From Microbacterium schleiferi (lineage in GTDB: Bacteria > Actinomycetota > Actinomycetes > Actinomycetales > Microbacteriaceae): 64,000 nt of DNA. Shown in pieces: positions 30,247 through 61,407 of this stretch. The stretch is from the NCBI RefSeq assembly GCF_015565955.1, contig NZ_CP064760.1:1922001-1986000 (forward strand). Direction: 5' to 3'. The notes under the pieces were generated by a model. It had not been told where the DNA came from, did not search any database, and worked only from the letters and a program-made list of their open reading frames with translations. A program made the translations under genes and the position numbers. Each line of letters begins with the position of its first letter. The first letter of the stretch is position 1.

Positions 30247-30273
30247 AAAAACCCGGTACAAGACCGGGTTTTT
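30247..30273 (-). terminator. terminator, former tRNA-Glu transcript end
   Basis: AAAAACCCGG (30247-30256) pairs with CCGGGTTTTT (30264-30273) around 7 nt, giving T runs on both strands. It lies directly outside the left attachment repeat and was probably the original terminator of tRNA-Glu before the element inserted. Confidence 0.85.
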
Positions 30274-30275
30274 CG

Positions 30276-30325
30276 TTGTTGGTGACCCCAGCGGGATTCG
30301 AACCCGCGTTACCGCCGTGAGAGGG
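30276..30325. repeat. attL: left 50-bp attachment repeat with tRNA-Glu 3' fragment
   Basis: Identical to 61358-61407. It contains the last 46 nt of tRNA-Glu (30280-30325, minus orientation: T-arm and acceptor end with CCA), after which identity stops. It is the duplicated crossover region left by site-specific integration. Confidence 0.92.
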
Positions 30326-33728: not shown

Positions 33729-33732
33729 TACC

Positions 33733-33742: not shown

Positions 33743-33775
33743 CTGAGCGAACCGGATTCGTCAAGATGGGCAGCG

Positions 33776-35850: not shown

Positions 35851-35883
35851 TGAGCGTCAAGTGACTGGGGCAGACTGAGCGCG

Positions 35884-37101: not shown

Positions 37102-37124
37102 GCAAGGGGTGAGTCCGCGCCGCC

Positions 37125-37850: not shown

Positions 37851-37959
37851 GGCTCCTCACGGTAGTTCGGTAGTTCTCCTGCCGCCAGGAAGGAGAGGCA
37901 ACCCTGCACCTCGGCTCTTCGCCCGCAGATTCCAGTCGTGGTGCTCGGGTTTCAGAGCG

Positions 37960-41022: not shown

Positions 41023-41540
41023 ATGCCGGTCATCCTCCCTTCGACGGGCACGAGCCCGACATCTCCGCCGACGCCTGGGTCGCCCCGAACGCGTCCGTGA
41101 TCGGCAAGGTGCGCATCGCTGCAGATGCCAACGTCTGGTTCGGCGCGGTGCTGCGCGGCGACATCGACGAGATCGTGCTCGGCGAACGCAGCAACCTCCA
41201 AGACAACGCGGTGATCCACACCGAGGCGGGCAACCCGACGATCATCGGCGCCGACGTCAGCATCGGCCACGCCGCCGTCGTGCACGGCTGCGTCGTCGAA
41301 GACGGATGCCTCATCGGCATGAACGCGACCGTGCTGAACGGCGCCGTCATCGGCGCGAACTCGCTCGTCGCCGCGGGGGCGGTGGTGCTCGAGGGAACCG
41401 TCGTTCCGCCGCGATCGCTCGTCGCGGGCATCCCCGGCAAGGTGCGGCGGGAGCTCACCGACGAGGAGGTCGCCGGGCTGCTCGGCAACTCCGCGCGCTA
41501 TGTGCCGCGGTCGAAGATCTACCGCGCGGCCGAGGTCTAG
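41023..41540 (+). CDS. gamma-carbonic anhydrase-like hexapeptide protein, frameshifted near start
   Basis: A ~172-aa left-handed beta-helix protein of the gamma-carbonic anhydrase/YrdA/PaaY type. It shows hexapeptide repeats, DIDEIVLGERSNLQDNAVIH, and His metal ligands in SIGHAAVVHGC. ATG 41023 gives MPVILP and then the frame breaks; one missing C near 41035 restores FDGHEPDISADAWVAPNASV. The start is only 9 bp past the IS target site, so the native upstream region is gone. A second, partial copy of its C-terminus lies at 53902-54081. Confidence 0.8.
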
Positions 41541-41555
41541 AAGACCGCCGCGAGG

Positions 41556-42251
41556 TCACCACCAGAACCTCGCCCACCCCGAACCTCCGTCATCGATCCC
41601 CGGATGCCCGGGCGCATCCAATCCGGCGACCTCGCGCACCAGGGCGGCCAGCCTCGCGGGCTGCTCGTATGTGACGAAGTGCCGGGAGCCTTCGATGGTG
41701 CGAGTCTCGTAGCCCAGCCGCCGCAGCTCTCTCGCAACATGGTGCCTGGGCGCAGCCGACCGAGACCCCGTCGTGACCACGCATCGGGGTCCCCCGACCG
41801 GTCGACGTCGAGGCTGAAAGCTGCGGAACATGGCGATCTCCTTCGCCGTCGTCGCGTCGACGTCTCCGTGGTCATCGAGCAGGTCGACCGACCACCTCCT
41901 GCCATAGAGCGCCTTACCCACCGCTGTCGTCCCGCCACGGCGAAAGGCCTCGGCGGTCGGGGAGAGAAGGTCCGGCACCAGGTTCCCCGCCGCCGGCTCA
42001 TGGAGGACGAATCCATGGCACGCGGCACCCATGCCCGCGAGCGCGAGACCGAGGGTTGCCCCGCCTGACATCCCCACGATGACCGCGCCCGCCGCATACT
42101 CGGCCAGCCACTCGATCTCGTCCTCCAACCGACCGGTCTTCGGGCGACGAAGCGCCCGGAGCTGTGGAATCAAGCGCTTCAGAGGATCCCAGACGGCAGG
42201 TGAGGCCGCGACCCCGTGAACCGCGAGGATCGGGACGTCGTCAGCTGGCAT
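41556..42251 (-). CDS. alpha/beta-hydrolase of the catabolic cluster
   Basis: A 231-aa alpha/beta-hydrolase. The N-terminal strand has ILAVHGVAASPAVW, the nucleophile elbow is VIVGMSGGATLG (Ser near residue 65) and a late His sits in EGSRHFVTYEQP. It is the last gene of the minus-strand chain; ATG 42251 overlaps the stop of the allophanate hydrolase gene. A role in hydrolysing an ester or carbamoyl intermediate, or the side chain of the parent compound, is possible; its own sequence does not specify the substrate. Confidence 0.75.
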   Translation of the reverse strand: MPADDVPILAVHGVAASPAVWDPLKRLIPQLRALRRPKTGRLEDEIEWLAEYAAGAVIVGMSGGATLGLALAGMGAACHGFVLHEPAAGNLVPDLLSPTAEAFRRGGTTAVGKALYGRRWSVDLLDDHGDVDATTAKEIAMFRSFQPRRRPVGGPRCVVTTGSRSAAPRHHVARELRRLGYETRTIEGSRHFVTYEQPARLAALVREVAGLDAPGHPGIDDGGSGWARFWW

Positions 42252-44006
42252 CGGCCGCCCTGTTGAGATCATCGGCCGCCGCGGCCATATACGAGCGCCA
42301 CCCGCCGTACGCGGTGATGTCACGCGCTCCCTCGAGCGCCGTCGGATCGCAGACGAATCCGTGGACGGCGGTGCCGTCGTCGAGCTCGAGCGTGCCGATC
42401 GCCAACGGTGCACTCACACCGCGGAGAAAGGACCCGACGGTAGCAGTCGGAAGCCGATAGACCTCGACCTCGATACGAGCGCCTTCTCGTAGATCGGTCA
42501 CCAGCCCGGGACGTCGCGGCTCGTCGCCGGGGAGCGCGTAGAGCCGGTACCGGGGTGCGGTCATCGTGCGCCGGCTCAGGAGCCCGCCGCGATCGGTGAT
42601 TTGGTGATGAAGTCCGAACCCCTCGAGATGGGCGCCGACGACGGCGACCTCCATCAGCGAGTCCTGGTCGACCGCATCCGCGAGCGCCGACGCCAGCCCT
42701 GCGAGTTCCTGGTCGGCACCGGAAGGCCCATGAAGGGTGACACCGAAGGGGACGTGCGCCGCCGTACTCCCCGCCGGGACCGCGATGGCGCACATGTCGA
42801 GCAGGTTGGTAAAGGTCGTGTAGGTACCCAATTGCGCGTTGAGTTCGACGGGGTCAGCGCGCATCTGCTCGACCGTGTAGGTCTTCGTCACCGTGGGAGT
42901 GAGCAGAGCATCGACCGAACGGAGGATGTCATCCGCCTCCCGCCGCAACTCCCACACGCGGTGCATACTCGACCAGACCTGTGCGGCCGACATCGCACCG
43001 GCGCCCGCCAAGATCTGGCGCACGACCGGGTCGACGTCGTCTCGGTCCTCCTCGAGCGCGACCGAGACGGCGGTCGCGCGCTCAGCAAGCCACGCACCGC
43101 CATACAGGTGACGACCTGCCTCGAGAAGCGGGGTGTAGTCGATCTCAACCAGTTCGGCTCCGGCTCGGACGAGGTCGGCACGGACCCGACTCCACGCGTC
43201 CTCCTCGCCACGCTCGCCCCATCCGGCGACAACCTCAGGCACGCCCAGGCGGACTCCGGCGAGCGAGACCGAAGCAACCCGGGCGGAAGGAACCGGGAGC
43301 GGGCGCGACCAGGGGTCCTGATCATCGAAGCCGGCGATCACCTGAGCCACGATGGCTGCGTCGGCAACCGAGTTCGCCATCACCGAAACGCAATCGAGCG
43401 ACCGGCACGCCGGCACGACACCGCGAGTGCTGACAAGGCCCACACTCGGCTTGAGACCGACGACCCCGTTCAACGCCGCGGGAACGCGCCCGGACCCCGC
43501 GGTATCGGTCGCCAGAGAAAACGCAACCAGGCCCGCCGCAACAGCTACCGCGGATCCTGATGACGACCCGCCGGAGATGAGGGAGCTATCGTGGGCCGAG
43601 GAGGGCGTCCCGTAAGGAGAACGGGTACCGTTCAGACCGGTAGCGAACTGGTCCAGGTTGGTCTTGCCGACGAGGATCGCGCCTGCCGCGATCAGGTCGC
43701 GAACCACGGGTGCCGACTGCTGGGGCTGTAGGCGAAAGACGGGCACGCCGCCGTCGTCGCCCACCCCTCGACGTCCATGTTGTCTTTGACCGCGAAGGGG
43801 ATGCCCCAGAGCGGAAGACGATCGCGATCGGCAGGATCGAGTGCTTCAGCATCTCGGACGAGTCGATCGGAGACCGAGATCCAGACTCCGTCACGTCCTC
43901 GCGCATCGATCGCAGCCAGAGTGCGCTCCGCCACATCGCGAGGTGTGCAGGTTCCCCGCCGGTACGCGGAGTGGAGGCGGGCGATCTCCATGCGAGGAGA
44001 GATCAC
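42241..44006 (-). CDS. atzF: allophanate hydrolase, AtzF-like, frameshifted
   Basis: A ~588-aa amidase-signature enzyme that splits allophanate to ammonia and CO2. The start region AYRRGTCTPRDVAERTLAAI and LPLWGIPFAVKDNMDVEGW...TTAACPSFAYSP are hallmarks of allophanate hydrolase. The Lys (AVKDN) and the Ser-Ser pair in ISGGSSSGSAVAVAAG complete the triad. A C-terminal domain of the AtzF type follows (RYRLYALPG, TVGSFLRGVSAPLAIGT). One frame change near 43735 joins the two halves. GTG 44006 overlaps the preceding gene by 4 bp. Final step of cyanuric acid/biuret nitrogen release. Confidence 0.88.
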
Positions 44007-44706
44007 CGCGCGGATCCCTTACCGAACGCGTCATCCAGCGCCGACGACTCCGCGACCGCACCGAAAACACCCCCCTGCATGGTGATCATCTTCAGCGCCG
44101 CCTCGTAGTTTCCGTGATCGGTGGCGCCTGTGCAGTCACTGAGCAGAAGGCACTCGTAGCCGCGATCGTTCGCCTCCCGCATCGTCGTGTGCACGCAGAC
44201 GTCGGTTGTGATCCCCGTCAGAATCAGATGAGTGATCCCCGAGTGCGCAAGATCACGTCGAGATCGGTTCCGTAGAACGCCCCCTTGCCAGGCTTGTCGA
44301 TGACGATCTCGCCCACGAGAGGTGCCACTTCGGGCACAATCTGCCACCCGGGTTCCCCGCGTACGAGGATGCGTCCTCCCGGTCCTGACGACCCGATCTC
44401 GGCACCGATCTGCTGCGAGCGCCAGAGTTTGTTGGGCGGGCAGTCCGAGAGATCCGCCCGATGACCCTCGCGAGTATGGATCACCTGGAGGCCTGCCGCG
44501 CGAGCGGAACCGAGGATCCGCGCTGTGGGCGCGAGTCCGCGTCGGGTGAGTGTGAGGTCGTACCCCATGCGGTCGACGTAGCCACCGACCCCGCAGAAGT
44601 CCACCTGCCAGTCGATACACAGGAGCGCGGTCGACTGGGCGGAGAACGTTCCGTCGAACGGCCACGCGTACGGTGTGGCCGCTACCGGCCCGAATCTGCT
44701 CGTCAT
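44003..44706 (-). CDS. biuret hydrolase-like cysteine hydrolase 1, frameshifted
   Basis: Isochorismatase-fold cysteine hydrolase, ~234 aa. The catalytic triad is visible: Asp in [12 protein letters not shown], Lys in [12 protein letters not shown] and Cys in [18 protein letters not shown] missing base near 44241 breaks it between DVILR and [10 protein letters not shown]. Biuret hydrolase (BiuH) and N-carbamoylsarcosine amidase share this fold. Adjacency to ring-opening and allophanate hydrolase genes favours biuret to allophanate plus ammonia. It is paralogous to 45722-46447. Confidence 0.82.
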
Positions 44707-45722
44707 CGCCTCGTCTCACCTCCGCCCGTGGGTTCCTGCCACACCACCGTCACCGGACCTCCTCCAGGTGGCCCTTGGTTCTCGGCGCCTCCGGAGACGT
44801 AGATCGATGTGCGCCCGAACACCCCCGCTAGAAGGCCTCCTACGGCCGCGCGCGCGTGTCGTGTCGACGAGAGGTCGGTGTCGGTGAGCATCGTGTGCCG
44901 TAACCCTCGGATCCGCCCGTCCGGACTCGCCTCGGCCTTCGCGAAGACCTGCACGATGGTGCCGCCGGCGGCTCGGATGCGATCGCGGAGCGCGACGATC
45001 TCCTCCACGTCGATCGCGTCGTGCATGACCACCGTCTCAGCGTTCAGCTGTCCGCCGGGGTCGAGTCGAGACCCGAACGCCAGCACGAGGCACCGGTCGA
45101 GCTCGATACCGGCGGAAGCCGAAGCGACCGCCGACCAGACAGAAGGATCGCCTGCGAGGCCTTGGTCCGCTTCGACTCCGCCGATCTCTCCGCACGCGAG
45201 CGCGACGCCCAGCGAGCTAGCCGCTCGGGATCGCGCCATCGATAGGTAGGGATCATCCGTCACGGCCCCGCCTCTCGCTGACACGATCTGCTCGGTCGTC
45301 AGCAAAGGGCATTTCACGAGCACCATGTGGGCGTTGCGTGGATCAAAGCCTCCGTTGCGGCACGCTTCGAGCGTCGCCGCAGCGACCGCGTCGACCTGCT
45401 CTCGGCGCCCGAGCCCTTCGACAGATAACCGAGGGGTCTGCGCGAACCCCGCCGCAAGTCGCCCGTTGCCTGATGTCGAACCCTCCGAAACCACGGTGAC
45501 ATGCGGGCTGAGGACTCCCTCAGTGCCGCCCGACATGACGGTCAACGCCGGTTCCGAGAGCCCCTCGGTCCAGGCGCGAGTCGCGAGAGCCCGGCTGAAG
45601 TCGTTAACGCCGCCGTTCCCCTCCGTCTTTCCGATGACGGCAAGGACCCTTCGCCCGAACACCCTGTCGACCGGGGCGTCGTCGGGGGCAGCAACCGGCA
45701 CGACCGTCAGATCGACATACAT
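44703..45722 (-). CDS. atzD: cyanuric acid amidohydrolase/barbiturase family ring-opening enzyme
   Basis: A 339-aa ring-opening amidohydrolase (AtzD/TrzD/Bar family). Key segments are [16 protein letters not shown] (first repeat, with the catalytic Lys region), [16 protein letters not shown] (substrate-binding Ser-Gly-Gly) and [11 protein letters not shown]. Further Ser-Gly and Arg motifs include [17 protein letters not shown], and [14 protein letters not shown] is near the end. The family opens cyanuric acid to carboxybiuret or barbiturate to ureidomalonate. With biuret and allophanate hydrolases on both sides, cyanuric acid is the better guess. It is shorter than the usual ~360-370 aa. Overlaps both neighbours. 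Confidence 0.85.
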
Positions 45723-46447
45723 CAGCGCGTCCGGTCGTCGGCCGGGAGCGATTCCGCACCCAGCGCGGCGAGGACGGAGTCCGATGAAGCGACAGCCGCG
45801 AACAAGCCGCCCTGCATCGTGAGGATCTCGATCGTCTGCAAGTGCCGGGCGCGATCGGTCGCGGCCGTGCAATCCGACAGCACGAGTACCTCGAACCCGC
45901 GATCGTTGGCCTCCCTGATTGTGGTCGACACGCAGACATCGGTGGTCAACCCCGTAATCAGCAGATCGGTAATCCCCGCCATGCGCAGAATGTGCTCGAG
46001 GTCGGTGGCGTAGAACGCACCTTTGCCGGGCTTGTCGATGACCGTCTCACCCGCAAGCGGGGCCAACTCGGGGATGATCTCCCACCCAGCCTCGCCTCGA
46101 ATCAGCACGCGTCCCAGAGGCCCGACGGACCCGATCTCGACCCCCTGACTGGCGGAACGCCACCTCTTGGTGTCGGGCAGATCAGAGAGATCGGGGCGGT
46201 GCCCTTCTCGCGTGTGGATCACCGTCAGCCCGAGTTCGCGCGCCCGCCCAAGCACTCTTTGGGTGGGTTCTATCGCCGCACGGGTCAGGCTGATGTCATA
46301 GCCCAGCGAATCAATGAATCCACCGCTGCCGCAGAAGTCGACCTGCCAGTCGATGCAGAGCAGAGCCGTGCGCGTGAGATCGAGTTGACCGTGCCACGGC
46401 CAGGCATAGGGATCCGCCTGGATCGCCTGCGGTGTTGTCGTGGTCAC
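45722..46447 (-). CDS. biuH: biuret hydrolase-like cysteine hydrolase 2
   Basis: A 241-aa isochorismatase-fold cysteine hydrolase, intact, closely resembling the copy at 44003. Triad: Asp in [12 protein letters not shown], Lys in [12 protein letters not shown], Cys in [20 protein letters not shown] 46447 is preferred over a GTG 18 bp upstream because AAGGGAG lies 5 bp before it and the start then aligns with its paralogue. It leads the second gene chain, with a GTATAC operator candidate 26 bp upstream. Confidence 0.85.
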
Positions 46448-46465
46448 TATGACTCCCTTGCTCAC

Positions 46466-46485
46466 CTCGATCGTATACGACCTAC
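46466..46485. promoter_or_regulatory. candidate GntR/FCD operator upstream of biuH
   Basis: GATCGTATACGACC centred on the palindrome GTATAC (46473-46478). FCD-type GntR proteins commonly bind sites with a GTATAC-like core. The matching site at 53130-53135 shares GTATACGA. Confidence 0.55.
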
Positions 46486-46526
46486 CGGAGAGGGCCGGCG
46501 TCGGAGTGTTACCGCCGTGTTAAACC

Positions 46527-47168
46527 TCAGCGACGGATGAGCTCGTCGAAGAACGCAAGGTCGCCGAGGACGTGCTCGCGCATGAGATGAGCCGCGGCCT
46601 CCTCGCCGCCGAGAATCGACGCGCAGATGTCGCGATGCTCATCCCACGACCCGGCAGCGCGCGCAGCCAGCTCCGCTCCGAATATCCAACTGAGGCGGCT
46701 GCGCAGCGTCCTCAGCATCTCGACGAGTTCTCGATTTCCGGAAGCAATCGCCACCGTGTCGTGGAATCGCTCCACCAGCTCCGAATGGCGCTCGGGTTCG
46801 GTCACCGGGTCGAGGGTGCTGCCCTCTTCTGTAAGAGATCGAAGTTCGCGTGCCATCGCCCCTCCGTGGGCAGCCGCGGCAAGCCGCGCCGCCATCGCCT
46901 CGAGTTCGGCGCGGATCGCGATGAGCTCGCGGGTGCCCGATGACTCGGGCTGGGCGACTATTGCACCCTTGTATTTGCGCAACTCGAGAAAGCGCTGCTG
47001 CTCCAGCACCTGAAAGGCCTCGCGCACGGGTACTCGGGAGACGTCGAAATCGGAAGCAATCTCCTCCTCGCGAAGCCGGCTGCCGGGAACGTACGAGCCA
47101 TCGATGATCCGTCCCCGGATCGCGGCGGCAATCACGTCGCGCAGGGGAAGCCCAGCACGAGAAGCCAT
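46527..47168 (-). CDS. GntR-family (FCD) transcriptional regulator
   Basis: A 213-aa regulator. N-terminal winged helix with LRDVIAAAIRGRIIDGSYVPG, then SRLREEEIASDFDVSRVPVREA (signature core VSRVPVREAF). A C-terminal FCD all-helical ligand domain (about 80-213) follows, with the metal-binding Asp/His pattern in VERFHDTVAIASGN and DEHRDICASI. It sits between the two catabolic gene chains on the same strand, so it is the obvious candidate for controlling them, probably with a triazine intermediate as inducer. Confidence 0.88.
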   Translation of the reverse strand: MASRAGLPLRDVIAAAIRGRIIDGSYVPGSRLREEEIASDFDVSRVPVREAFQVLEQQRFLELRKYKGAIVAQPESSGTRELIAIRAELEAMAARLAAAAHGGAMARELRSLTEEGSTLDPVTEPERHSELVERFHDTVAIASGNRELVEMLRTLRSRLSWIFGAELAARAAGSWDEHRDICASILGGEEAAAHLMREHVLGDLAFFDELIRR

Positions 47169-47217
47169 GCTCCTCACTCTAGGGACCAACCCCGCCAGAT
47201 GCCGAGTTCCGGTCGCC

Positions 47218-48032
47218 TCAGCTGGATGCTCCCCCGCTTGCGGACGATTCCGCCTCCGTCGCGTCCAGTCGCGCGTTCAGCCCGTCGACGATGCGATGCA
47301 AGCGATCATCCCGCAGCAGATCCGGCTCACGGGGTCGCTCGAACCCCACTTCGACGACATCGGCGACCTGCGCCGGTCTGGCGCTCAGCACGACGACTCG
47401 GTCGGCGAGGAACACCGCCTCCTCGACGCTGTGCGTGACGAGGAGCGTCGTGATGCGCAACCGCGTCCACACCGCCTGCAGCTCCACATTGAGTCGTCGT
47501 CGCGTCACCGCGTCGAGCGCTCCGAACGGCTCGTCCAGAAGCAGAACGGAGGGATCCAGAGCCAGAGCCCGCGCGATCGAGACTCGTTGACGCATCCCGC
47601 CGGAAAGCTGGGACGGGCGCGCATCGGCGAAGCCCCGGAGTCCGACCAAGTCGATCAGATCATCTACCTGGTGCCGATCGACGTCACGGCCCGCGACTCG
47701 GAAAGGGAGCTCAATGTTCTTGCGCACCGTCAACCACGGCAGCAGTGCGTGGTCCTGGAACGCGACACCCAGGCGATGATCGCGCGCGAGGACTCGCGGA
47801 TGCTCACCGGCGATCGTCACGGACCCCGAAGTCGGCTCGTCAAGTCCGGCAATCATCCGCAAGATCGTCGACTTCCCCGAGCCCGACGGGCCGATGAGCG
47901 CGACGAACTCCCCTCGGCGATCTCCAGGTCTACCCGCTTGATCGCCTGGACCGACGCTCCGCGCTTCAGCCGGAACGACTTCGAGACCGCCTCGACCCGC
48001 ACGCTGCGCCCGAGAGGCGCGCCGGCGTTCAT
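47218..48032 (-). CDS. nitrate/taurine/NMT1-type ABC ATPase, frameshifted
   Basis: A ~270-aa SsuB/TauB-type ATPase. Walker A is GPSGSGKSTILR, the Q loop VAFQDHALLPWL, the signature LSGGMRQRVSIARAL, Walker B VLLLDEPFGALD and switch His in LVTHSVEEAV. The true N-terminus reads from ATG 48032 (MNAGAPLGRSVRVEAVSKSF) and joins EGEFVALIGPSGSG after restoring one G near 47905. ATG 48032 overlaps the amidohydrolase stop. It energises the two permeases encoded upstream. Confidence 0.88.
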
Positions 48033-49441
48033 CGGCCCACCTGGAGTCGTGCGCGGTCCGCGATGCCGCGGGAACGCTCCGAGGCCTCCCGCACCAGGGC
48101 CGCGAGGTCGCCGTCAGCGCCAAGGAAGGTAGGAACGCCGCGTTCGACGACGACCCGACCGTCGACTATCACGGTACGTACCGCGACCGTGGGTTGCAAG
48201 AATACGAGCGCCGCGTACAAGTCGGCCGCGGGCGTCATCCGCGGCTCCTCCAGATCAAGGATGACGAGGTCGGCGCGCTTGCCGACCTCGATCGATCCGA
48301 TCAGGTCATCCATACCCAGAACCCGCGCTCCCTCGATCGTTGCCATTTCCACGACCCGCTGCGGACTGATCGCCCCCGGGTCACGACTCACCGCGCGGTG
48401 CAGGAGCGCCAGGAGCTTCATCGAACCGAAGAGATCGACCGCATCCGAGCAGTTCGCATCGTCCGTGCCGATCCCCATCGGGATGCCCGCCCGGAGCATT
48501 CGCGGAACCGGCGCGACCCCGGCGCCTAGAAAGGCGTTGCTCGCCGGCTGCGTCGATACCCGGGTGCCCGATTCTGCGAGCAACCGGATCTCACGATCGG
48601 AGACGTCGATGCAGTGCGCCGCGAGCAACCTCTCATCGAGCGCACCGACGCTGTCGAGATACTCGACCGCGCCCATCATGTGCTGCACGCGCTCCCGCTC
48701 GTCCTCGGCGACGTGCATCGTCCACATGGTTCCGCGCTCGCGCGCGATCTGTCGGCTCCGCTGCAGGGCGCGTCGGGAGACGATTCCGGGGATCGCCGGC
48801 GACGGCCACACTCGGATCCGACCCTCACCGGCCCTGTCGTACCTCCGCACGATCTCATCGAGGTCGGCCAAGACGCGATCGGTGTCGACGAAGATGTCGC
48901 TGTCCGGAACGTCCGGGGCCTTCGCACGGACCGCGCCGAGATAATCCTCGAAACCCGGCGCAGGCTGGTCGGCGAACATGCGAGCGTATACAGCGCGGAT
49001 GCCGCTCTCGACGAGGGCCTCGACAGTGCTCGCCGCGGTGGAGACCATGGAACGCGTTCCAGCATCCTCGTTGTCAACGATCGTCGTCACACCGTTCATC
49101 AACGCCTCCGTCGCGAACAGCAAGGTCGCGCACCGGATGTCGTCGTTCTCGTACACGCTCAGGCCCGGGTACAGCACGTTGTAGAGCCACTCGTAGAGTG
49201 GCCGATCGTGGGAGTAGCCGCCGCGAAGCAGGATCTGCGGCACATGGGTGTGCGCGTTCACGAGTCCCGGGATCACCGCGCGCCCCGCCGCCTCGATCAC
49301 CCGCGAGCCGACGGGAATCTCGACGTTCGATCCCACTGCGACGATCTCGCCGTCCTCGACCAACACGGTCGCCCGCTCGAGGTCGCGGCGCTCATCGTCC
49401 ATCGTCAGCACTCGCGCGTCAACGATCGCCACCGCGCTCAT
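48029..49441 (-). CDS. AtzA/TriA-like amidohydrolase, likely aminotriazine deaminase
   Basis: A 470-aa amidohydrolase-superfamily enzyme closely resembling AtzA (atrazine chlorohydrolase) and TriA (melamine deaminase). Metal ligands are H64 and H66 (NAHTHV), H243 (TMHVAE), H276 (LLAAHC) and D327. At positions distinguishing the two it is TriA-like: L82 and L90 (TriA 84, 92), D123 (TriA 125), D328 and C331 (GIGTDDANC). Hydrolytic removal of an amino group, as in melamine to ammeline, is therefore predicted over dechlorination. Other purine- or pterin-like amines cannot be excluded. It overlaps its neighbours by 4 bp each side. Confidence 0.82.
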   Translation of the reverse strand: MSAVAIVDARVLTMDDERRDLERATVLVEDGEIVAVGSNVEIPVGSRVIEAAGRAVIPGLVNAHTHVPQILLRGGYSHDRPLYEWLYNVLYPGLSVYENDDIRCATLLFATEALMNGVTTIVDNEDAGTRSMVSTAASTVEALVESGIRAVYARMFADQPAPGFEDYLGAVRAKAPDVPDSDIFVDTDRVLADLDEIVRRYDRAGEGRIRVWPSPAIPGIVSRRALQRSRQIARERGTMWTMHVAEDERERVQHMMGAVEYLDSVGALDERLLAAHCIDVSDREIRLLAESGTRVSTQPASNAFLGAGVAPVPRMLRAGIPMGIGTDDANCSDAVDLFGSMKLLALLHRAVSRDPGAISPQRVVEMATIEGARVLGMDDLIGSIEVGKRADLVILDLEEPRMTPAADLYAALVFLQPTVAVRTVIVDGRVVVERGVPTFLGADGDLAALVREASERSRGIADRARLQVGR

Positions 49442-50472
49442 GCCCGCGCCTCCTCGCCGGCTGCCACCGCATCGAGCTCCGCGAGCAGCGCGCTACGACG
49501 GTCATCGTCGCAGAAGGCCGACTCGATCGATGTTCGCGCGATGGCGAGAAGGTCATCGCGCTGCCAGCCGAACGCCCGCGCGGTCGCGGCGTACTCCTGG
49601 TCGAGAATCGATCCCAGGGCAGTGCCGTCGTCGGTGTTGAGGCTGATCCGCACCCCGGCTTGCCGCAACTCCTCGACTGGATGCGCGGCCCGGCTCTCGG
49701 TAAATCCAAGAGCGACGTTCGACCCCGGGCAGATGCCGAGCGGGATGCCTCGGTCGGCGATCTCGGCGACCAGCGCCGGTTCCTCGATCGCGCGGAAGCC
49801 GTGATCGATACGATCGGCCATCAGGAGGTCGATCGCATCGCGGACACCCTCGGGACCACTGGACTCCCCTGCGTGAACGGTCCGGTAAATGCCACGGGAT
49901 GCCGCGCGGCGGAAAGTGTCGGCGAACCTTGCGGACACACGCCCGGCAACCGCTTCGTCGCCGTCGATCGACAGGGCGACCACCCGCGGATGGTCCCGCT
50001 CCAGCATCCAATCCAGCAGTTCATCGGCCTCAGCGGCGGATTGCTGGCGCAACAAGCTCAGGCACAGGCCAGTCGACGGGAGTCCGTCCTGTTCCGCCTC
50101 TCGCCATCCGGCGTCGAGGGCGTCGACGAGTCCCGCGATATTTCCGCGCCAGGCCTCCCAGTGGGTCGGGTTGATGATCACGTCGGTGTAGCGGATGCCG
50201 CTGGCCGCCTGCCTCTGGGCGAACCGATAGGCGACGGATGCCGCGTCGTCGGCGGTCCTGACCAGCGACGCACCCCAGTCGAGGAACTGGAGAAATTCGG
50301 TGAGTCCGTCGAAATCGAAGAGCTGCTCGGCCGGTCGGCGAAGGGGCACCCCGTACTTGCCGGCCAGTCGCATCAGCTCCTCCCGGTCGATGCATCCGTC
50401 CAGGTGCACGTGGACCTCGGCTTTGGGTACCGTCCGTACCCAAGCCTCGTCGATGTTGTCGTTCACGATCAT
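49438..50472 (-). CDS. adenosine deaminase-family hydrolase
   Basis: A 344-aa ADA-superfamily enzyme. Zinc ligands appear in KAEVHVHLDGC (HxH), HAGESSGPEGV (His-Ala-Gly-Glu, catalytic Glu), RIDHGFRAIEE (His) and SLNTDDGTALG (Asp-Asp). Length fits the family. The usual LPKAELHLH start is conserved as VPKAEVHVH. Set between triazine-like transport and hydrolase genes, it may deaminate an amino-triazine intermediate (ammeline, ammelide) or an adenine-like compound; the substrate is inference. Overlaps the permease and amidohydrolase genes. Confidence 0.85.
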   Translation of the reverse strand: MIVNDNIDEAWVRTVPKAEVHVHLDGCIDREELMRLAGKYGVPLRRPAEQLFDFDGLTEFLQFLDWGASLVRTADDAASVAYRFAQRQAASGIRYTDVIINPTHWEAWRGNIAGLVDALDAGWREAEQDGLPSTGLCLSLLRQQSAAEADELLDWMLERDHPRVVALSIDGDEAVAGRVSARFADTFRRAASRGIYRTVHAGESSGPEGVRDAIDLLMADRIDHGFRAIEEPALVAEIADRGIPLGICPGSNVALGFTESRAAHPVEELRQAGVRISLNTDDGTALGSILDQEYAATARAFGWQRDDLLAIARTSIESAFCDDDRRSALLAELDAVAAGEEARA

Positions 50473-51260
50473 CCCTTCCCATTACTGCCGTCGTGATAAG
50501 CCGCTTCGAGCCACCGCGTCACGGCCGAAGCCAGCCCGAAGAATGCGAGAGAGAGCACTGTGGCGACGATGGCGGCACCCCAGGATCGCGACATGTCGTA
50601 GGAGACCCGCGACACCACGAAGAGCTGCCCGAGACCCGACGACCCGACGACGAACTCGGCGAGCAGCACCCCGACCACCGACCCGACCGCAGAGAGCCGG
50701 AACGCCTCCAAGAGCGAAGGGACCGCGGCCGGGAGATCGAGCCGCCGGAACCTCGTCCATCTCGAGGCTCCCAGCACCGTCAGCAGGTCCTGCTTGCTGC
50801 GCGAGGCGGAGGCCAGACCGCGCGACACCAGGACGAACGCTGGAAAATACGCGACCAGTGTGGCGACGACCAGCACGGTCGGCGTTCCGTAACCGACAAT
50901 CCGCGCGAAGATCGGAACCATCGCCACCATGGGAACAGCGCGGACGATCAGCACCGCGGGCCGCACCGCCGCACGCACGACTCCTGAGAGATGGGCCGCG
51001 ATGGCGAGTCCGATGCCAAGCAGTTGTCCCAGGACGAGACCCGTCGCGGCCAGCCCGGCGCTCACCGTGAGGTCGGGAAGATACGCATCCGGATGTCCGA
51101 CCAGGTCGGCGAGAACACTCGCCGGGGAGGGCATGACGACCCGGTTGACCTGCCCGATCACGACCCACAGCGCCCACGCGGCGACGATCGCCACGACCGC
51201 CACGTTGTCCCAGGCGAACCGGGCGACCGCTCGCCCGATAGCCGTCACGCGCGCGTTCAC
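50469..51260 (-). CDS. ABC transporter permease 2 (SsuC/TauC type)
   Basis: A 263-aa inner-membrane permease with about six helices and the cytoplasmic coupling motif EAFRLSAVGSVVGVLLAEFV (EAA-type loop preceded by LGASRWTRFRRLDLPAAVPSLL; core LPAAVPSLLEAF). GTG 51260 overlaps the stop of permease 1. It works with permease 1, the NMT1-type binding protein and the ATPase at 47218. Confidence 0.87.
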   Translation of the reverse strand: MNARVTAIGRAVARFAWDNVAVVAIVAAWALWVVIGQVNRVVMPSPASVLADLVGHPDAYLPDLTVSAGLAATGLVLGQLLGIGLAIAAHLSGVVRAAVRPAVLIVRAVPMVAMVPIFARIVGYGTPTVLVVATLVAYFPAFVLVSRGLASASRSKQDLLTVLGASRWTRFRRLDLPAAVPSLLEAFRLSAVGSVVGVLLAEFVVGSSGLGQLFVVSRVSYDMSRSWGAAIVATVLSLAFFGLASAVTRWLEAAYHDGSNGKG

Positions 51261-52039
51261 AGCCCGAACCTCGCCGCGCTCCGCCGGGCGAGTGACGCAG
51301 CGCCGCCGTAGACGATGCTGGCGGGCACTGCGGTCAGGACCCCCGCCGCCCACAGCAACGGGATGTCGTAGTTCTGCATCGAGTTGATCAGCAGGGGCCC
51401 GATGCCCCGGGCGGAGCCGAACCACTCGCCGATCACCGCCCCCAACAGGGCCGCGGGAATCGCCAGCTGAAGAGCCGCGAACACCGCTGGGAGCGCCGCG
51501 GGCGCTTCCAGCTGCGCGAGCACCGCGATCCGCCGGGCACCCAGTACGGCAAACAGGTCCTCCTGCGCCGCCCGTCGGGTCCACAGCGCGGAGCAGATGA
51601 CGACAAAGGCAGCGAAGTAGGCCGCTGTCGCCGCCAGCGCCGCGGGCACGACGGCGCGGGGCAGAAGGACCATGAGCAGCGGGCCGAGGGCGACGACCGG
51701 AACCGCCTCGACGAGAACCGCGAAGCGCTCCGCCGGGCGACGCGTGACCGGCATCAGGCGGGAGAGCACCGCGGTCGCCACCGCGGCGCTGATTCCGATC
51801 ACGCCGCCGAGAAGCCCCTCCTGGACGGTCACCCCGAGCGCCCCCCACAACCTCGGCGCACGCGCGGGATCGACGATCACCCACAACACGTCGGTGAGGG
51901 GTGGCCAGGAGGTGGAGAGGACCCCGGTCCGGCCGATGATCTCCCACGCCGAGGCGAAGAGGAGCACGCCGATCACGATCTCGATGGTCTTTCGGGACCG
52001 CGTCGCCGTGCCGACCGGACCGAGGTCCTGCACAGTCAT
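51257..52039 (-). CDS. ABC transporter permease 1 (SsuC/TauC type)
   Basis: A 260-aa permease with six predicted helices and the EAA-like loop LGARRIAVLAQLEAPAALPAVF (core LEAPAALPAVFAAL), then GAVIGEWFGSARGIG. It overlaps the binding-protein gene upstream (stop 52036) and permease 2 downstream. Two different permeases imply a heterodimeric channel. Confidence 0.87.
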   Translation of the reverse strand: MTVQDLGPVGTATRSRKTIEIVIGVLLFASAWEIIGRTGVLSTSWPPLTDVLWVIVDPARAPRLWGALGVTVQEGLLGGVIGISAAVATAVLSRLMPVTRRPAERFAVLVEAVPVVALGPLLMVLLPRAVVPAALAATAAYFAAFVVICSALWTRRAAQEDLFAVLGARRIAVLAQLEAPAALPAVFAALQLAIPAALLGAVIGEWFGSARGIGPLLINSMQNYDIPLLWAAGVLTAVPASIVYGGAASLARRSAARFGL

Positions 52040-53082
52040 CGGAGCAGGGTTGCCGATCCGCCGAAGACCTCGTCGAGCAGCGATTCGTCAACGTAAGTCG
52101 CGACATCAGGAAGATCGGTCATGCCCGCAGCCCGCAGGATCGGGTACATCTTCTGCTCGATGTCCTCCGCCGAGATCCGCAACAGACCCGACTCCGCGGT
52201 GAGATCGCTCGTCGTCATCGGGATCTGATTGATGTTCTCCTTGATCTGCTGGCTCAGCGAGAGTCCCAGGTCGGCTCCCCACACGTCGACCGCGAGCTGC
52301 GCGGCCACTTCGGGGTCGTCGGCGTTCTTCTCCCAGCCCTTCACGGTAGCCCGCAACCAGGCGACAACCAGGTCGCGGTTCTCTTCCAGGTAGGTGCGGT
52401 CGACGAAGATCATGTTGGAGTAGACATCCAGACCCAGGTCCTGCCACGACACGCTGGTGTAGTCCACACCCTGCTCTTCGAGGATGAGTCCCTGGTTGGT
52501 GGCGAAGGCGGTGATCCCGTCGACGTCTCCGTTCACGAGCGCTTGCACGTCGTAGCCGATCGGCACGAACTCGTAATCCGGCTCTAGCCCGTTGATGGTG
52601 AAGATGGCATCCAGTTCACGCTGCTGCCCCTGGGGGCTTCCGATGCGCTTGCCGATCATGTCCTCGACCGAGTTGATCGGGTTCTCGGAGAGCGACAGGA
52701 TTGCCAATGGGCTCTCCTGGTAGACAGCACCGACGAGCACCACGTCGGCTCCCTCCGACACGGCGTCGATGAACGAGGTGAAGTTCGTATCGAGTCCGAT
52801 CGGTGCGTCACCGGATGCGACGATCTGAACGGTGTTGGAGACGTTGGGGCCGCCCGGCAGCCATTCGGCGACGATGCCCTCCTCCGCGTAGTAGCCCTCG
52901 CTCTCGGCGATCCACATTCCGGCGAACTCCACGTTGGTGACCCAGTTCAGCTGTGTCGCCACGACCGGAAGGGACTCTTCCTCGGTCGATGGCTCCGCCG
53001 CACAACCGGCGATCGTCAGCATCCCCACCATGGTCGCACCCGCCCAGGCGAGACGCCTATCGCGGTGGCTTGAAGTCTTCAT
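52036..53082 (-). CDS. NMT1/THI5-like substrate-binding lipoprotein
   Basis: A 348-aa binding protein. Lipoprotein signal with MLTIAGCAAEP (Cys near residue 25), then the NMT1/ThiY-type fold (TQLNWVTNVEFAGMWIAESEGYY, core EFAGMWIAESEGYY; IGLDTNFTSFIDAV). Family members bind small heteroaromatic ring compounds and their precursors such as HMP, riboflavin or nitrile- and sulfonate-type ligands, so a triazine or pyrimidine ring is reasonable. ATG 53082 heads the first gene chain, 48 bp downstream of a GTATAC site. Confidence 0.86.
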   Translation of the reverse strand: MKTSSHRDRRLAWAGATMVGMLTIAGCAAEPSTEEESLPVVATQLNWVTNVEFAGMWIAESEGYYAEEGIVAEWLPGGPNVSNTVQIVASGDAPIGLDTNFTSFIDAVSEGADVVLVGAVYQESPLAILSLSENPINSVEDMIGKRIGSPQGQQRELDAIFTINGLEPDYEFVPIGYDVQALVNGDVDGITAFATNQGLILEEQGVDYTSVSWQDLGLDVYSNMIFVDRTYLEENRDLVVAWLRATVKGWEKNADDPEVAAQLAVDVWGADLGLSLSQQIKENINQIPMTTSDLTAESGLLRISAEDIEQKMYPILRAAGMTDLPDVATYVDESLLDEVFGGSATLLR

Positions 53083-53122: not shown

Positions 53123-53142
53123 GCGTTTTGTATACGATCCAT
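53123..53142. promoter_or_regulatory. candidate GntR/FCD operator upstream of binding-protein gene
   Basis: GTTTTGTATACGATCC centred on GTATAC (53130-53135). It shares GTATACGA with the site at 46473-46478. The two lie upstream of the two gene chains and nowhere else noticed in the cluster. Confidence 0.55.
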
Positions 53143-53901: not shown

Positions 53902-54081
53902 AGGTGGTGGTGCTCGAGGGGCACGATCGTGCCGCCGCAGTCGCTCGTCGCGGGCATCCCGGGCAAGGTGCGCCGCGAGCTCACTGACGAGGAGGTCGCG
54001 GGGTTGCTCGGCAACTCCGCGCGCTATGTGCCGCGGTCGAAGGTGTACAAGGCGGCGGAGGGTCAGGACGCCGCGGGTTAG
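53902..54081 (+). pseudogene. partial copy of gamma-carbonic anhydrase C-terminus
   Basis: Encodes VVLEG...VPPQSLVAGIPGKVRRELTDEEVAGLL and YVPRSKVYKAAEGQDAAG in shifted frame, matching the end of the gene at 41023-41540 almost residue for residue (given here in pieces). The 5' two thirds are absent and the junction with the phosphatase remnant lies at about 53900. Confidence 0.75.
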
Positions 54082-54405: not shown

Positions 54406-55368
54406 CTAGGTGTAGCGACCCGTGAGGTTGTGAAGGCGGCAGGTGGGGGTGTGGCCTCCGAGGGCGGTGTGGGGTCGTCGGTGATTGTATTCCTCGAGCC
54501 AGTCGGCGTAGGTGGCTGATCTTGCCGCGTTCGAGAGGTAGGTCGATGCGTAGGCCCACTCGGCGGCGAGGGTGCGGTTGAATCTCTCCACTTTCCCGTT
54601 CGTCTGTGGCCGGTAGGGGCGGGTGCGGATGTGCCGGACTCCCTCGCCGAGGGCCGCGGCGAAGTCGTGGGAGCGGTAGCAGGAGCCGTTGTCGGTCATG
54701 ACGGCTTTGACGGTGAGGCCGGCTTCGGCGAAGTGAGCGCGGGCGCGGATCCAGAACCCGGCGGCGGTGTCCTTCTGTTCGTCGTCGAGCTCTTCGGAGT
54801 AGGCCAGGCGGGTGCAGTCATCGACCGCGTGGTGCAGGAACGAGTAGCCGGTCCCGGCGCGGCGGTTGCGGCGTCCGGCGTGACGGCCGAGCATCCGGTG
54901 GCCGCCACCGTCAGGGATCCGACCCAGTTTCTTGATATCGACATGCACGATATCGCCCGGCGCGGCCGCCTCGTACCGGATCGGTTTCGGCTTCCGAACG
55001 GGCAGCCCGGTGTTGCGGTCCAGATGCGACAGCCGCGGCATCCGATAGCGGGCAAGCACCCGACCCACGGTCGCCGGGTTCAACCCCAGATGCCAGGCGA
55101 TCCGCCGAGCACCCCACCGCCGGTTGAAGCGGATCGCGACGATCCGCCGCTCCGTGCGACGGTCAAGCTGGGTCGGCGATCGATACGGACGGGAACTGCG
55201 ATCAGTCATCGGCTGACCCGCCCGGTATCGATCGGCCCACTTCTTCGCCGTCGCCTGCGAACACTGGAACCGTTCCCCAGCCCGGGCGAGCGACCAGCCG
55301 CCGACAACGACCGCACGAGCAAGCCGAAGCCGCCCCCTCGGCGTCAAATGAGCATTAGCGTGAACCAC
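54406..55368 (-). CDS. IS481-family transposase (DDE), copy B
   Basis: A 320-aa transposase. Start GTG 55368 (VVHANAHLTPRGRLRLARAVV aligns with copy A). DDE core: AVDDCTRLAYSEE (Asp), VMTDNGSCYRSHD (Asp), QTNGKVERFNRT (Glu). The stop TAG is formed by 54406-54408, inside the flanking CCTAGG target duplication and beyond the inverted repeat. Confidence 0.9.
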   Translation of the reverse strand: MVHANAHLTPRGRLRLARAVVVGGWSLARAGERFQCSQATAKKWADRYRAGQPMTDRSSRPYRSPTQLDRRTERRIVAIRFNRRWGARRIAWHLGLNPATVGRVLARYRMPRLSHLDRNTGLPVRKPKPIRYEAAAPGDIVHVDIKKLGRIPDGGGHRMLGRHAGRRNRRAGTGYSFLHHAVDDCTRLAYSEELDDEQKDTAAGFWIRARAHFAEAGLTVKAVMTDNGSCYRSHDFAAALGEGVRHIRTRPYRPQTNGKVERFNRTLAAEWAYASTYLSNAARSATYADWLEEYNHRRPHTALGGHTPTCRLHNLTGRYT

Positions 55369-55624: not shown

Positions 55625-55660
55625 TCCTACCTGATATGGTAGCTGTTATCTTAGGTAGGA
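55625..55660 (+). promoter_or_regulatory. inverted repeat overlapping relaxase RBS
   Basis: TCCTACCT (55625-55632) pairs with AGGTAGGA (55653-55660), which overlaps the AGGAGG binding site of the relaxase gene. It could limit relaxase translation or be a protein-binding site. The gap 55471-55669 has no other gene. Confidence 0.5.
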
Positions 55661-55669
55661 GGCGAAGGC

Positions 55670-60172: not shown

Positions 60173-61300
60173 ATGGGAAGCATCGAGTCCTACGACACGG
60201 CCAAGGGCCGTCGCTACCGGGCGCTCTACCGACGCCCGGACAAGAAGCAGACGCAGAAGCGCGGCTTCACCACCAAGAAGGCCGCCGAGCTGTTCCTGGC
60301 GACCACGGAGGTCGACATCGCCCAGGGCCGCTACCTCGACCCGTCGCGTGCGCGGGTGACCGTGGCCGAATGGCTCCAGACCTGGATCGCCGCCCGCGGC
60401 GACCTCCGGGCGACGACCCGCAGCCGGGTCGAGAACATCATCGCCAAGCACATCGTCCCCGAGTTGGGGAAGATCCCGATCGGCGACCTCACCCGCCTGC
60501 GGGTGCAGGAGTGGGCCTCGGCCCTCCCCGGTGCCCCGGCGACCGTCCGCAAGATCGTCAACGTCCTCTCCGGTTCGCTCCGATTCGCGGTCGAGGACGA
60601 GCGCCTGCCGTCCAACCCCGCCGCCCGGCTCAAACTCCCCAAGCCCACCAAGTCCCGCAAGCGGTATCTGTCCCACAATCAGGTCGCCGCGCTCGCCCAG
60701 GCCATTGACGAGATGAAGGATGGGCGCGAGTACGGCTACGGCCTCGTCGTCCTCGTGCTCGCCTACTGCGGCCTGCGCTGGGGCGAGCTGTCCGGGCTCC
60801 GCATCCGTGACCTCGACCTCGACGCGAAGCACCCGCGCCTCACCGTCGAGCAGACCGTCGTGGCCGACAAGGGCTACCAGCGCATCGAGCCGCCGAAGGA
60901 CTACGAGCACCGCAGTATCCCGATCCCGGCGTTCCTCGTCGGGCTGCTCCGCGCGCAGATCGCCGGGCGCCCGGCCTACGCCCCGGTGTTCTACGGCATC
61001 CGCACCGGCACCTGGCTTCGCAACCACGTCTACCGGGTCGGCTGGTTCGACACCGCGGCCGAGGCGGTCGGGATCAAGGGCCTCACCCCGCACGAGCTGC
61101 GGCACACCGCTGCCTCGCTCGCCGTCAGCGCCGGCGCGAACGTGAAGGCCGTCCAGCGGATGCTCGGGCACGCCTCGGCCGCGGTGACCCTCGACGTGTA
61201 CGCCGACCTGTTCGATGACGACCTGGACGGTGTTGCCACGGCGCTGAACCTCGCGGCCATGCAATCAGATGTTGCCAATCTGTTGCCAAAAGCGGCATAG
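60173..61300 (+). CDS. int: tyrosine recombinase/integrase
   Basis: A 375-aa phage-type integrase. N-terminal AP2-like arm-binding part (1-60), SAM-like core-binding domain (65-150) and catalytic domain. Catalytic residues: Arg in AYCGLRWGELSGL, Lys region EPPKDYEHRSIPI, His-x-x-Arg in LTPHELRHTAASL, His in MLGHASAAVTLDVY with the nucleophile Tyr as the last residue of that motif. It lies 57 bp from the right attachment repeat. Its last codons contain a GTTGCCA pair, so the arm site overlaps the coding end. Confidence 0.95.
   Translation: MGSIESYDTAKGRRYRALYRRPDKKQTQKRGFTTKKAAELFLATTEVDIAQGRYLDPSRARVTVAEWLQTWIAARGDLRATTRSRVENIIAKHIVPELGKIPIGDLTRLRVQEWASALPGAPATVRKIVNVLSGSLRFAVEDERLPSNPAARLKLPKPTKSRKRYLSHNQVAALAQAIDEMKDGREYGYGLVVLVLAYCGLRWGELSGLRIRDLDLDAKHPRLTVEQTVVADKGYQRIEPPKDYEHRSIPIPAFLVGLLRAQIAGRPAYAPVFYGIRTGTWLRNHVYRVGWFDTAAEAVGIKGLTPHELRHTAASLAVSAGANVKAVQRMLGHASAAVTLDVYADLFDDDLDGVATALNLAAMQSDVANLLPKAA
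61271..61288. promoter_or_regulatory. paired GTTGCCA motifs, candidate integrase arm sites (right)
   Basis: GTTGCCA at 61271-61277 and 61282-61288 with 11-bp offset, matching the left pair. A third GTTGCCA lies at 61232-61238 inside the integrase gene. Confidence 0.5.
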
Positions 61301-61327: not shown

Positions 61328-61359
61328 AAGAAAACCCCCGGCTGACCGGGGGTCTTCTT
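61328..61359. terminator. bidirectional terminator between integrase and tRNA-Glu
   Basis: ACCCCCGG (61334-61341) pairs with CCGGGGGT (61346-61353), flanked by A-rich and T-rich stretches on both sides. It can end both the integrase transcript and, from the other strand, the restored tRNA-Glu transcript. Confidence 0.8.
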
Positions 61360-61407
61360 GTTGGTGACCCCAGCGGGATTCGAACCCGCGTTACCGCCGT
61401 GAGAGGG
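61358..61407. repeat. attR: right 50-bp attachment repeat
   Basis: Identical to 30276-30325. Here it forms the 3' part of the intact tRNA-Glu gene, so insertion regenerated the tRNA. Confidence 0.92.

What the first reader, a model, noticed from the sequence alone, without database searches (positions are those of the whole stretch)
41556..53082. Complete-looking amino-s-triazine degradation and uptake cluster on an integrative element
Seen: a minus-strand set encoding an NMT1-type ABC importer, ADA-like enzyme, AtzA/TriA-like amidohydrolase, AtzD/barbiturase-like ring opener, two biuret hydrolase-like enzymes, allophanate hydrolase, alpha/beta hydrolase and one GntR/FCD regulator. Known: cyanuric acid goes by AtzD to carboxybiuret, which loses CO2 to biuret, then BiuH to allophanate and AtzF to ammonia and CO2. 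Inference: the front enzymes strip amino groups from a melamine- or ammeline-like ring, making one compact route from import to ammonia. I know of no cluster with exactly this make-up, though I could not search.
Basis: partly seen in the sequence, partly recalled or inferred. Interest (0 to 1): 0.88.

Follow-up and report, generated by a model that had tools for sequence, protein, structure and literature searches.

The report
Mobile melamine-type triazine degradation cluster
Several Microbacterium strains share a recently mobile DNA element with twelve clustered genes that look like one pathway for importing a melamine-like pollutant and breaking it down to ammonia, with an unexpected adenosine-deaminase-type enzyme at the front.

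Summary
The ring opener has all five cyanuric-acid-hydrolase specificity residues, no barbiturase state. The amidohydrolase falls with AtzA/TriA and has the three residues that mainly make TriA a melamine deaminase. A palindrome, TNGTATACNA, precedes both operons; M. schleiferi has only these two sites, and M. dauci's three all lie at its triazine modules. The cluster rides a ~31-kb integrase/relaxase element in tRNA-Glu, near-identical in four Microbacterium genomes. AtzF, the second BiuH and the ATPase are frame-broken in this assembly; intact copies exist in the three other genomes. Best reading: one regulon for uptake and mineralisation of melamine-type amino-s-triazines, with an ADA-family enzyme recruited as ammeline/ammelide deaminase. 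No activity is shown; entry substrate and ADA role are inferred. New variant of a known kind.

The parts
52036..53082 (-). NMT1/THI5-type substrate-binding protein of the ABC importer
   Evidence: PF09084 137.9 bits; best solved relative 3ix1, an aminopyrimidine-binding protein, 71.2 bits
51257..52039 (-). ABC permease 1
   Evidence: PF00528; 4-nt overlaps with neighbours
50469..51260 (-). ABC permease 2
   Evidence: PF00528; 4-nt overlaps
49438..50472 (-). ADA-family deaminase with a changed pocket
   Evidence: PF00962, TIGR01430 261.7 > 216.55; eight positions differ from nearly all of 114 relatives
48029..49441 (-). AtzA/TriA-clade amidohydrolase, predicted amino-s-triazine deaminase
   Evidence: AtzA 4v1x 396 bits, next sequence 181; L84, D328, C331; tree
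47218..48032 (-). ABC importer ATPase; frame interrupted in this assembly, intact in other copies; start inferred from L002
   Evidence: PF00005; 271-aa intact copy in L002
46527..47168 (-). GntR/FCD transcription regulator
   Evidence: PF00392 and PF07729
46471..46480 (.). Operator-like palindrome TCGTATACGA, 5 nt before the GTG start taken for BiuH1 (further if a later start is used)
53128..53137 (.). Operator-like palindrome TTGTATACGA, 45 nt before the binding-protein start
45722..46465 (-). Biuret hydrolase copy 1 (BiuH1)
   Evidence: NF050097 402.2 > 370
44703..45722 (-). Cyanuric acid hydrolase (AtzD type)
   Evidence: PF09663; signature residues; NF052395 344.7, below its cut-off of 360
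44003..44706 (-). Biuret hydrolase copy 2 (BiuH2); frame interrupted here, intact in other copies
   Evidence: NF050097 406.4 > 370 for the L002 copy
42241..43991 (-). Allophanate hydrolase (AtzF); frame interrupted here, intact in other copies; start inferred from L002
   Evidence: TIGR02713 688.1 > 511.05 for the L002 copy
41556..42251 (-). Alpha/beta hydrolase of unproven role
   Evidence: PF12697; relatives directly after BiuH in M. dauci and G609
30262..30325 (.). Left att repeat of the integrative element
   Evidence: 64-nt direct repeat, 92% to the right copy
61344..61407 (.). Right att repeat, overlapping tRNA-Glu(ctc) 61362-61437
60173..61300 (+). Tyrosine integrase
   Evidence: PF00589 71.4 bits
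55636..59088 (+). TrwC-type relaxase-helicase
   Evidence: PF08751 and PF13604
39949..41013 (+). IS481-family transposase left of the cluster
54406..55368 (-). IS481-family transposase right of the cluster

Best explanation
The element carries one regulon for importing and fully mineralising melamine-type amino-s-triazines as a nitrogen source. (1) The NMT1-type ABC importer brings in the aminotriazine. (2) The AtzA/TriA-clade enzyme removes an amino group (melamine to ammeline). (3) The ADA-family enzyme, whose gene overlaps it, removes the remaining amino group(s) (ammeline to ammelide and/or ammelide to cyanuric acid). (4) AtzD opens cyanuric acid to 1-carboxybiuret, which loses CO2 to give biuret, perhaps helped by the alpha/beta hydrolase. 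(5) The BiuH copies give allophanate. (6) AtzF gives ammonia and CO2. A GntR/FCD regulator acting at TNGTATACNA sites switches both operons. Shown here by sequence: gene families, AtzD-type and BiuH-type residues, gene overlaps, the palindromes and their places, mobility. Inferred: all activities, the entry substrate, the order of deaminations, binding of the regulator to the palindromes, and the roles of the ADA and the alpha/beta hydrolase.
For: AtzD residues: three Ser/Lys dyads plus R195, T321, R325, G345, G346. BiuH1, BiuH2 and AtzF pass their equivalog cut-offs. The amidohydrolase is in a 32-row clade with AtzA/TriA (100/99) without the 8-oxoguanine deaminases, and has L84, D328 and C331, the three main melamine-deaminase determinants of Noor et al.. 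The two deaminases sit between permease and ATPase in a run of 4-nt gene overlaps. TNGTATACNA: 2 sites in 64 kb where shuffles gave a mean of 0.04; only 2 in the whole M. schleiferi assembly; all 3 of M. dauci at its upper and lower modules. M. dauci pairs the 99.9% identical upper module with a different AtzD-BiuH-AtzF module, whose BiuH matches Rhodococcus sp. Mel BiuH (6xjm) in 227 of 228 residues, the exception being Ser for Cys at the active site of the deposited chain. The ADA pocket differs from 114 relatives at eight positions, three right after the catalytic Asp pair.
Against: No enzyme was assayed and no growth data were found. D328 and C331 are the family default (119 and 112 of 120 homologues), so they say deaminase, not melamine. 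AtzD scores just under the NF052395 cut-off (344.7 of 360). The ADA passes the adenosine-deaminase equivalog, and the same genome has an ADA + amidohydrolase + related ABC ATPase locus without this palindrome, so a purine origin of the front module is likely. By number alone the palindromes are not striking: the reversed control pattern gave 2, 1, 1, 40, 1 and 2 sites in G000, M. dauci, G1331, G609, M. schleiferi and 67-17 against 4, 3, 3, 7, 2 and 3; the case rests on where they lie. The two M. dauci modules each lie about 100 bases from a contig end, so they may be neighbours rather than independent loci. Why there are two BiuH copies is unexplained. Three genes are broken as assembled.
Confidence: 0.72

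Rival explanations
1. Two nitrogen-scavenging modules joined: a purine (adenine/guanine-type) import and deamination module beside a cyanuric acid/biuret module, with no shared pathway.
For: ADA passes TIGR01430; the own genome has a paralogous ADA + amidohydrolase + related ATPase locus; the deaminase residue pair is the family default.
Against: The same palindromes at upper and lower modules, also with M. dauci's different lower module; AtzA/TriA clade; ADA pocket changed at positions nearly fixed in relatives.
Confidence: 0.13
2. The entry compound is an N-alkylated or hydroxylated triazine (for example cyromazine or hydroxyatrazine-type residues) rather than melamine; the AtzA-like enzyme removes an alkylamine.
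For: Positions 219, 253 and 255 differ from both AtzA and TriA, so the pocket or channel may take other side groups.
Against: L84, D328 and C331 are the TriA states that favour deamination of melamine.
Confidence: 0.2
3. Mainly a cyanurate/biuret/triuret cluster: BiuH1 acts on triuret and the front enzymes are incidental. (Raised from 0.08 to 0.1 after a recount of the BiuH1 residues.)
For: Rhodococcus sp. Mel BiuH is a biuret/triuret generalist (PMC7948467, passages). Of six positions named there as telling TrtA from BiuH, BiuH1 has the BiuH state at three, the TrtA state at two (one shared with BiuH2 and the Mel enzyme) and neither at one; BiuH2 has five BiuH states.
Against: BiuH1 passes NF050097, whereas the second, TrtA-like cysteine hydrolase of R. 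leguminosarum scores 245 and fails. The AtzA-like and ADA proteins are 100% identical in M. dauci and G1331 too, so the front module is kept.
Confidence: 0.1
4. The cluster is decaying in this strain: frame breaks in AtzF, BiuH2 and the ATPase are real mutations.
For: Breaks present in the assembly.
Against: All three breaks are single missing bases in a single-contig assembly, in an element otherwise near-identical to three intact copies.
Confidence: 0.07

Closest known systems
Rhodococcus sp. Mel melamine pathway
   Same: Actinobacterial BiuH co-located with AtzD (PMC7948467, passages); its BiuH (6xjm) is matched by the M. dauci lower module except at the deposited active-site Ser.
   Different: From recall (Dodge et al. 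2012, not held), its genes lie in several separate regions with a TrzA-type first enzyme; here all predicted steps are in one cluster and an ADA-family enzyme is present.
Rhizobium leguminosarum-type cyanuric acid/biuret cluster
   Same: AtzD, BiuH, a second cysteine hydrolase, AtzF, GntR and ABC transport (PMC5806882, passages).
   Different: No AtzA-like or ADA-like front enzymes in the two stretches read; its second cysteine hydrolase is TrtA-like and fails the BiuH cut-off.
TriA/AtzA (melamine deaminase, atrazine chlorohydrolase)
   Same: Same supported clade; three key TriA residues.
   Different: About 45% identical (AtzA and TriA are 98% identical to each other); positions 219, 253, 255 unlike either. 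AtzA/TriA have closer kin in the tree than the window enzyme.
atzDGEHF operon of pADP-1
   Same: AtzD and AtzF steps.
   Different: AtzG/AtzE and an HpxZ-annotated protein in place of BiuH; AtzA lies elsewhere on that plasmid.
ADA-family adenosine/adenine deaminases
   Same: Protein family and catalytic residues.
   Different: Eight positions changed against 114 relatives, including the loop after the catalytic Asp pair.

Membership tests
Cyanuric acid hydrolase (AtzD/TrzD) | PF09663 family and three Ser/Lys dyads | tested here: met
   338.4 bits; all dyads aligned
Cyanuric acid hydrolase (AtzD/TrzD) | R195, T321, R325, G345, G346 as against barbiturase N, H, K, V, S/A | tested here: met
   5 of 5, read off the alignment; key from PMC3758960 section 12
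Cyanuric acid hydrolase (AtzD/TrzD) | NF052395 equivalog cut-off of 360 bits | tested here: not met
   344.7 bits; the M. dauci module's AtzD reaches 371. Called AtzD-type on residues, not on this model
Cyanuric acid hydrolase (AtzD/TrzD) | Hydrolysis of cyanuric acid | not testable with these tools
   needs assay
Biuret hydrolase (BiuH) | NF050097 cut-off of 370 and Asp/Lys/Cys triad with Gln215 | tested here: met
   402.2 and 406.4; residues
Triuret hydrolase (TrtA) | TrtA states at the six positions named in PMC7948467 | tested here: not met
   BiuH1 2 of 6 TrtA states, BiuH2 1 of 6; both have Asp where TrtA has Glu160
Allophanate hydrolase (AtzF) | TIGR02713 cut-off and AH_C domain | tested here: met
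   688.1 > 511.05, PF21986, intact L002 copy
Melamine deaminase (TriA) | Clade with AtzA/TriA | tested here: met
   32-row clade 100/99
Melamine deaminase (TriA) | L84, D328, C331 | tested here: met
   also general in the family (D328 119/120, C331 112/120)
Melamine deaminase (TriA) | Near-identity to TriA | tested here: not met
   44.8% to the TriA-like Klebsiella protein
Melamine deaminase (TriA) | Deamination of melamine | not testable with these tools
   needs assay
Adenosine/adenine deaminase | Catalytic residues and TIGR01430 cut-off | tested here: met
   261.7 > 216.55; H15, H17, H214, E217, H238, D295, D296 in mouse numbering
Adenosine/adenine deaminase | Pocket residues nearly fixed in its own subfamily | tested here: not met
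   D25, G283 and A285 in 0 of 114; A68, W123, V179 in 2; T96, T284 in 1
Integrative mobilizable/conjugative element | Integrase, att repeats at a tRNA, relaxase | tested here: met
Integrative mobilizable/conjugative element | Own type IV secretion genes | not tested
   not searched for

The most novel reading that the evidence does not exclude
An adenosine-deaminase-family enzyme has been recruited as an amino-s-triazine (ammeline/ammelide) deaminase and welded by gene overlaps into a dedicated melamine importer operon, giving a single transferable regulon that takes melamine from outside the cell to six ammonia and three CO2. To my knowledge, and within the paper searches listed, this would be the first triazine-active member of the ADA family and the first dedicated melamine importer.
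Probability: 0.5. Interest if true: 0.78.

Novelty: new variant of a known kind. Interest (0 to 1): 0.64.

Why it matters
Melamine and cyanurate are widespread man-made nitrogen compounds. A near-identical element in four Microbacterium genomes suggests that a compact pathway has spread recently. It gives testable candidates for an importer, a new ADA-family deaminase and a regulator with a candidate operator, and it shows one upper module paired with two different lower modules. The palindrome may serve as a search key for further pathway parts: in G609 such sites lie around an AtzD-BiuH locus with an AtzC-like enzyme and ABC transporter genes.

Tried and rejected
Rejected: barbiturase (residues); AtzA-type chlorohydrolase (no AtzA state at any of nine positions); purine-only front module (kept as a rival at 0.13). 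Plasmid or phage origin: a megablast against PLSDB found 4 records covering only 2-3% of the cluster; viral contigs gave no relative of the AtzA-like, ADA or AtzD proteins; phage records matched the AtzA-like protein in 13 records, the 5 listed at 26.6-31.4% identity. The alpha/beta hydrolase as a pathway-specific family: it had 341 homologues at E <= 0.001 and none in PLSDB, so only its presence in the 3 of 3 actinobacterial AtzD+BiuH modules that I read (directly after BiuH in M. dauci and G609, after AtzF in the window) supports a role. Other AtzD relatives: G068 has no BiuH or AtzA-like match on the 19 kb read and lacks the AtzD signature; G1113 (3.8 kb read) and G1215 (18 kb read) showed no other cluster gene. 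Papers: searches showed no paper on this cluster or on an ADA-family triazine deaminase in the listings seen (one search listed 25 of 57); most subscription papers are not held. Papers seen: passages of PMC7948467, PMC5806882, PMC4051656, PMC3758960 (also its section 12), PMC3387218, PMC4356373, PMC11945447; the rest as listings. Structure prediction was not run, since I expected it only to restate known folds.


Full report
Observation. The minus strand of window 41556-53082 carries twelve genes. Pfam and NCBIfam scans name an NMT1-type binding protein, two permeases, an ADA-family protein, an amidohydrolase, an ABC ATPase, a GntR/FCD regulator, BiuH, an AtzD/TrzD ring opener, a second BiuH in two frames, AtzF in two frames and an alpha/beta hydrolase. 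The window lies in a single-contig genome of 3.30 Mb; the three named records with the same AtzA-like protein are Microbacterium.

Frame breaks. In this assembly AtzF, the second BiuH and the importer ATPase are interrupted. M. schleiferi FXH-192 (L002), Microbacterium sp. 67-17 (L004) and G1331 carry otherwise near-identical DNA with intact genes. Every difference inside the cluster from L002 and L004 is a single base that the window lacks. Consensus error is the simplest reading; real mutation is not excluded.

Ring opener. Scores against solved structures are 231-212 bits for five cyanuric acid hydrolase sequences and 184 for the barbiturase 5hwe. The literature key separates the two activities by residues 195, 321, 325, 345 and 346 (PMC3758960, section 12). 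Read off the alignment, the window enzyme has Arg, Thr, Arg, Gly and Gly, and all three Ser/Lys dyads. Against this, it misses the NF052395 cut-off by 15 bits and has Asn where the five sequences compared have His in the GGAEHQGP loop.

Biuret and allophanate steps. Both BiuH copies pass NF050097, while the second cysteine hydrolase of the R. leguminosarum cluster, TrtA-like, does not. BiuH1 and BiuH2 are 61% identical. At six positions that a paper names as telling TrtA from BiuH (PMC7948467, passages), BiuH2 has five BiuH states; BiuH1 has three, two TrtA states and one of neither kind. A wider substrate range for BiuH1 is therefore open. AtzF (L002 copy) passes TIGR02713 with 688 bits.

AtzA-like enzyme. 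It scores 396 bits to AtzA and 181 to the next solved sequence. A 50-row tree, using 40 of the 120 listed homologues and ten other sequences, puts it in a 100/99 clade of 32 rows with AtzA and TriA, apart from the 8-oxoguanine deaminases. Within that clade AtzA/TriA sit with two other rows (94/88) and the window enzyme in a sister group of 27. At the nine AtzA/TriA positions it has six TriA states and no AtzA state. These include L84, D328 and C331, the three substitutions that dominate melamine activity in Noor et al. (PMC3387218, passages). D328 and C331 are also found in 119 and 112 of 120 homologues, so they mark a deaminase, not melamine as such. The comparison TriA is a Klebsiella plasmid protein that differs from AtzA at eight positions, all among the nine.

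ADA-like enzyme. Catalytic residues are intact. Of 120 listed homologues I set aside the own copy and the five nearest (P0122-P0126), leaving 114. At positions 25, 68, 96, 123, 179, 283, 284 and 285 the window residue occurs in 0, 2, 1, 2, 2, 0, 1 and 0 of 114. P0122-P0124 share all eight; P0125 and P0126 share six. Three of the positions follow the catalytic Asp pair directly. The nearest ADA relative (P0122) and the nearest AtzA-like relative (P0002) show the same contig statistics, 4 contigs with the longest 9361 bases, which suggests but does not prove that they are neighbours. A pocket shift fits a new substrate; which one is not shown.

Operons and palindromes. In the intact copy, the genes for binding protein, permeases, ADA, AtzA-like enzyme and ATPase overlap by 4 nt each, so the two deaminases are locked between importer genes. 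BiuH1, AtzD, BiuH2, AtzF and the alpha/beta hydrolase form a second tight run. The palindrome TNGTATACNA occurs twice in 64 kb, 45 nt before the binding-protein start and 5 nt before the GTG start taken for BiuH1; none of 100 shuffles had two. Whole genomes: M. schleiferi 2 sites, both here; M. dauci 3, all at its triazine modules; G1331 3, 67-17 3 and G000 4, two of each here; G609 7, five within 13 kb at its AtzD-BiuH locus. The reversed control pattern gave 1, 1, 1, 2, 2 and 40 in the same order, so the evidence is the location, not the number. The further G000 site nearest the window lies just inside an open frame. The paralogous ADA locus has none. That the GntR/FCD protein binds this site is inferred.

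M. dauci. Strain LX3-4 has the upper module at 99.9% DNA identity, cut inside GntR next to a transposase with HTH_21 and rve domains. On another contig it has GntR (41% identical), an NCS2 permease, AtzD (49%), BiuH (74% to BiuH2), an alpha/beta hydrolase (35%) and AtzF (44%). Both modules lie about 100 bases from a contig end; the ends show no overlap, so they may be neighbours across a gap or lie apart. That BiuH matches the solved Rhodococcus sp. Mel BiuH in 227 of 228 residues, the exception being Ser for the active-site Cys in the deposited chain. Rhodococcus sp. Mel is a melamine degrader (recalled). So the same upper module occurs with two different lower modules, each carrying the same palindromes.

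Mobile element. Direct repeats of 64 nt at 30262-30325 and 61344-61407 bracket about 31 kb; the right one overlaps tRNA-Glu(ctc), next to a tyrosine integrase, with a TrwC relaxase inside. Inside, identity to M. schleiferi and 67-17 is about 99.9%. Outside, aligned pieces on the left are 77-88% identical, and 200-base bins right of about 61400 mostly 78-91%. In 67-17 the element is spread over three contigs and about 4 kb between them were not seen. G1331 has the element at a tRNA-Glu(ctc) with six single-base indels and no substitution up to the right repeat, and all 12 proteins 100% identical. The AtzA-like protein is in 5 of 366 Microbacterium genomes, all 100% identical, and in 1 of 396 genomes sampled across the order, the own one.

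Verdict. It is a new variant of known s-triazine catabolism. The ADA-family step is the most surprising part and the one that most needs an assay.

Noticed in passing
window 41393-41548 and 53919-54074: Two direct-repeat pieces (85% identical) flank the cluster just inside the IS481 copies; the left one lies in a hexapeptide-repeat (gamma-carbonic-anhydrase-like) gene, as if the cluster had entered by recombination between gene copies.
   Followed up: partly
window 31013-39897: Other cargo of the element: zeta-toxin-domain protein, low-molecular-weight phosphatase, pyridine nucleotide-disulphide oxidoreductase, chromate transporter, P-type ATPase.
   Followed up: no
G000:C1:236500-256400 (L030): Chromosomal locus with a 50% identical ADA, a 32% AtzA relative, a related ABC ATPase (55%), creatininase and a Bmp-type transporter: a possible source of the upper module.
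   Followed up: partly
L055 and L070 (G609): A different actinobacterial AtzD-BiuH locus with the same palindromes, an AtzC-like amidohydrolase (324 bits to 6nbo), a cytosine-deaminase-like enzyme and ABC genes.
   Followed up: partly
L013 (Klebsiella quasipneumoniae plasmid pKqs_SB610_3): A TriA-like gene, eight residues from AtzA, near ring-opening amidohydrolase genes and a Bmp-type transporter on a conjugative plasmid from water.
   Followed up: no
window 55636-59088: The relaxase match begins only at position 73 of the TrwC profile, and otherwise near-identical copies differ near its start, so its beginning may also be misread in this assembly.
   Followed up: no
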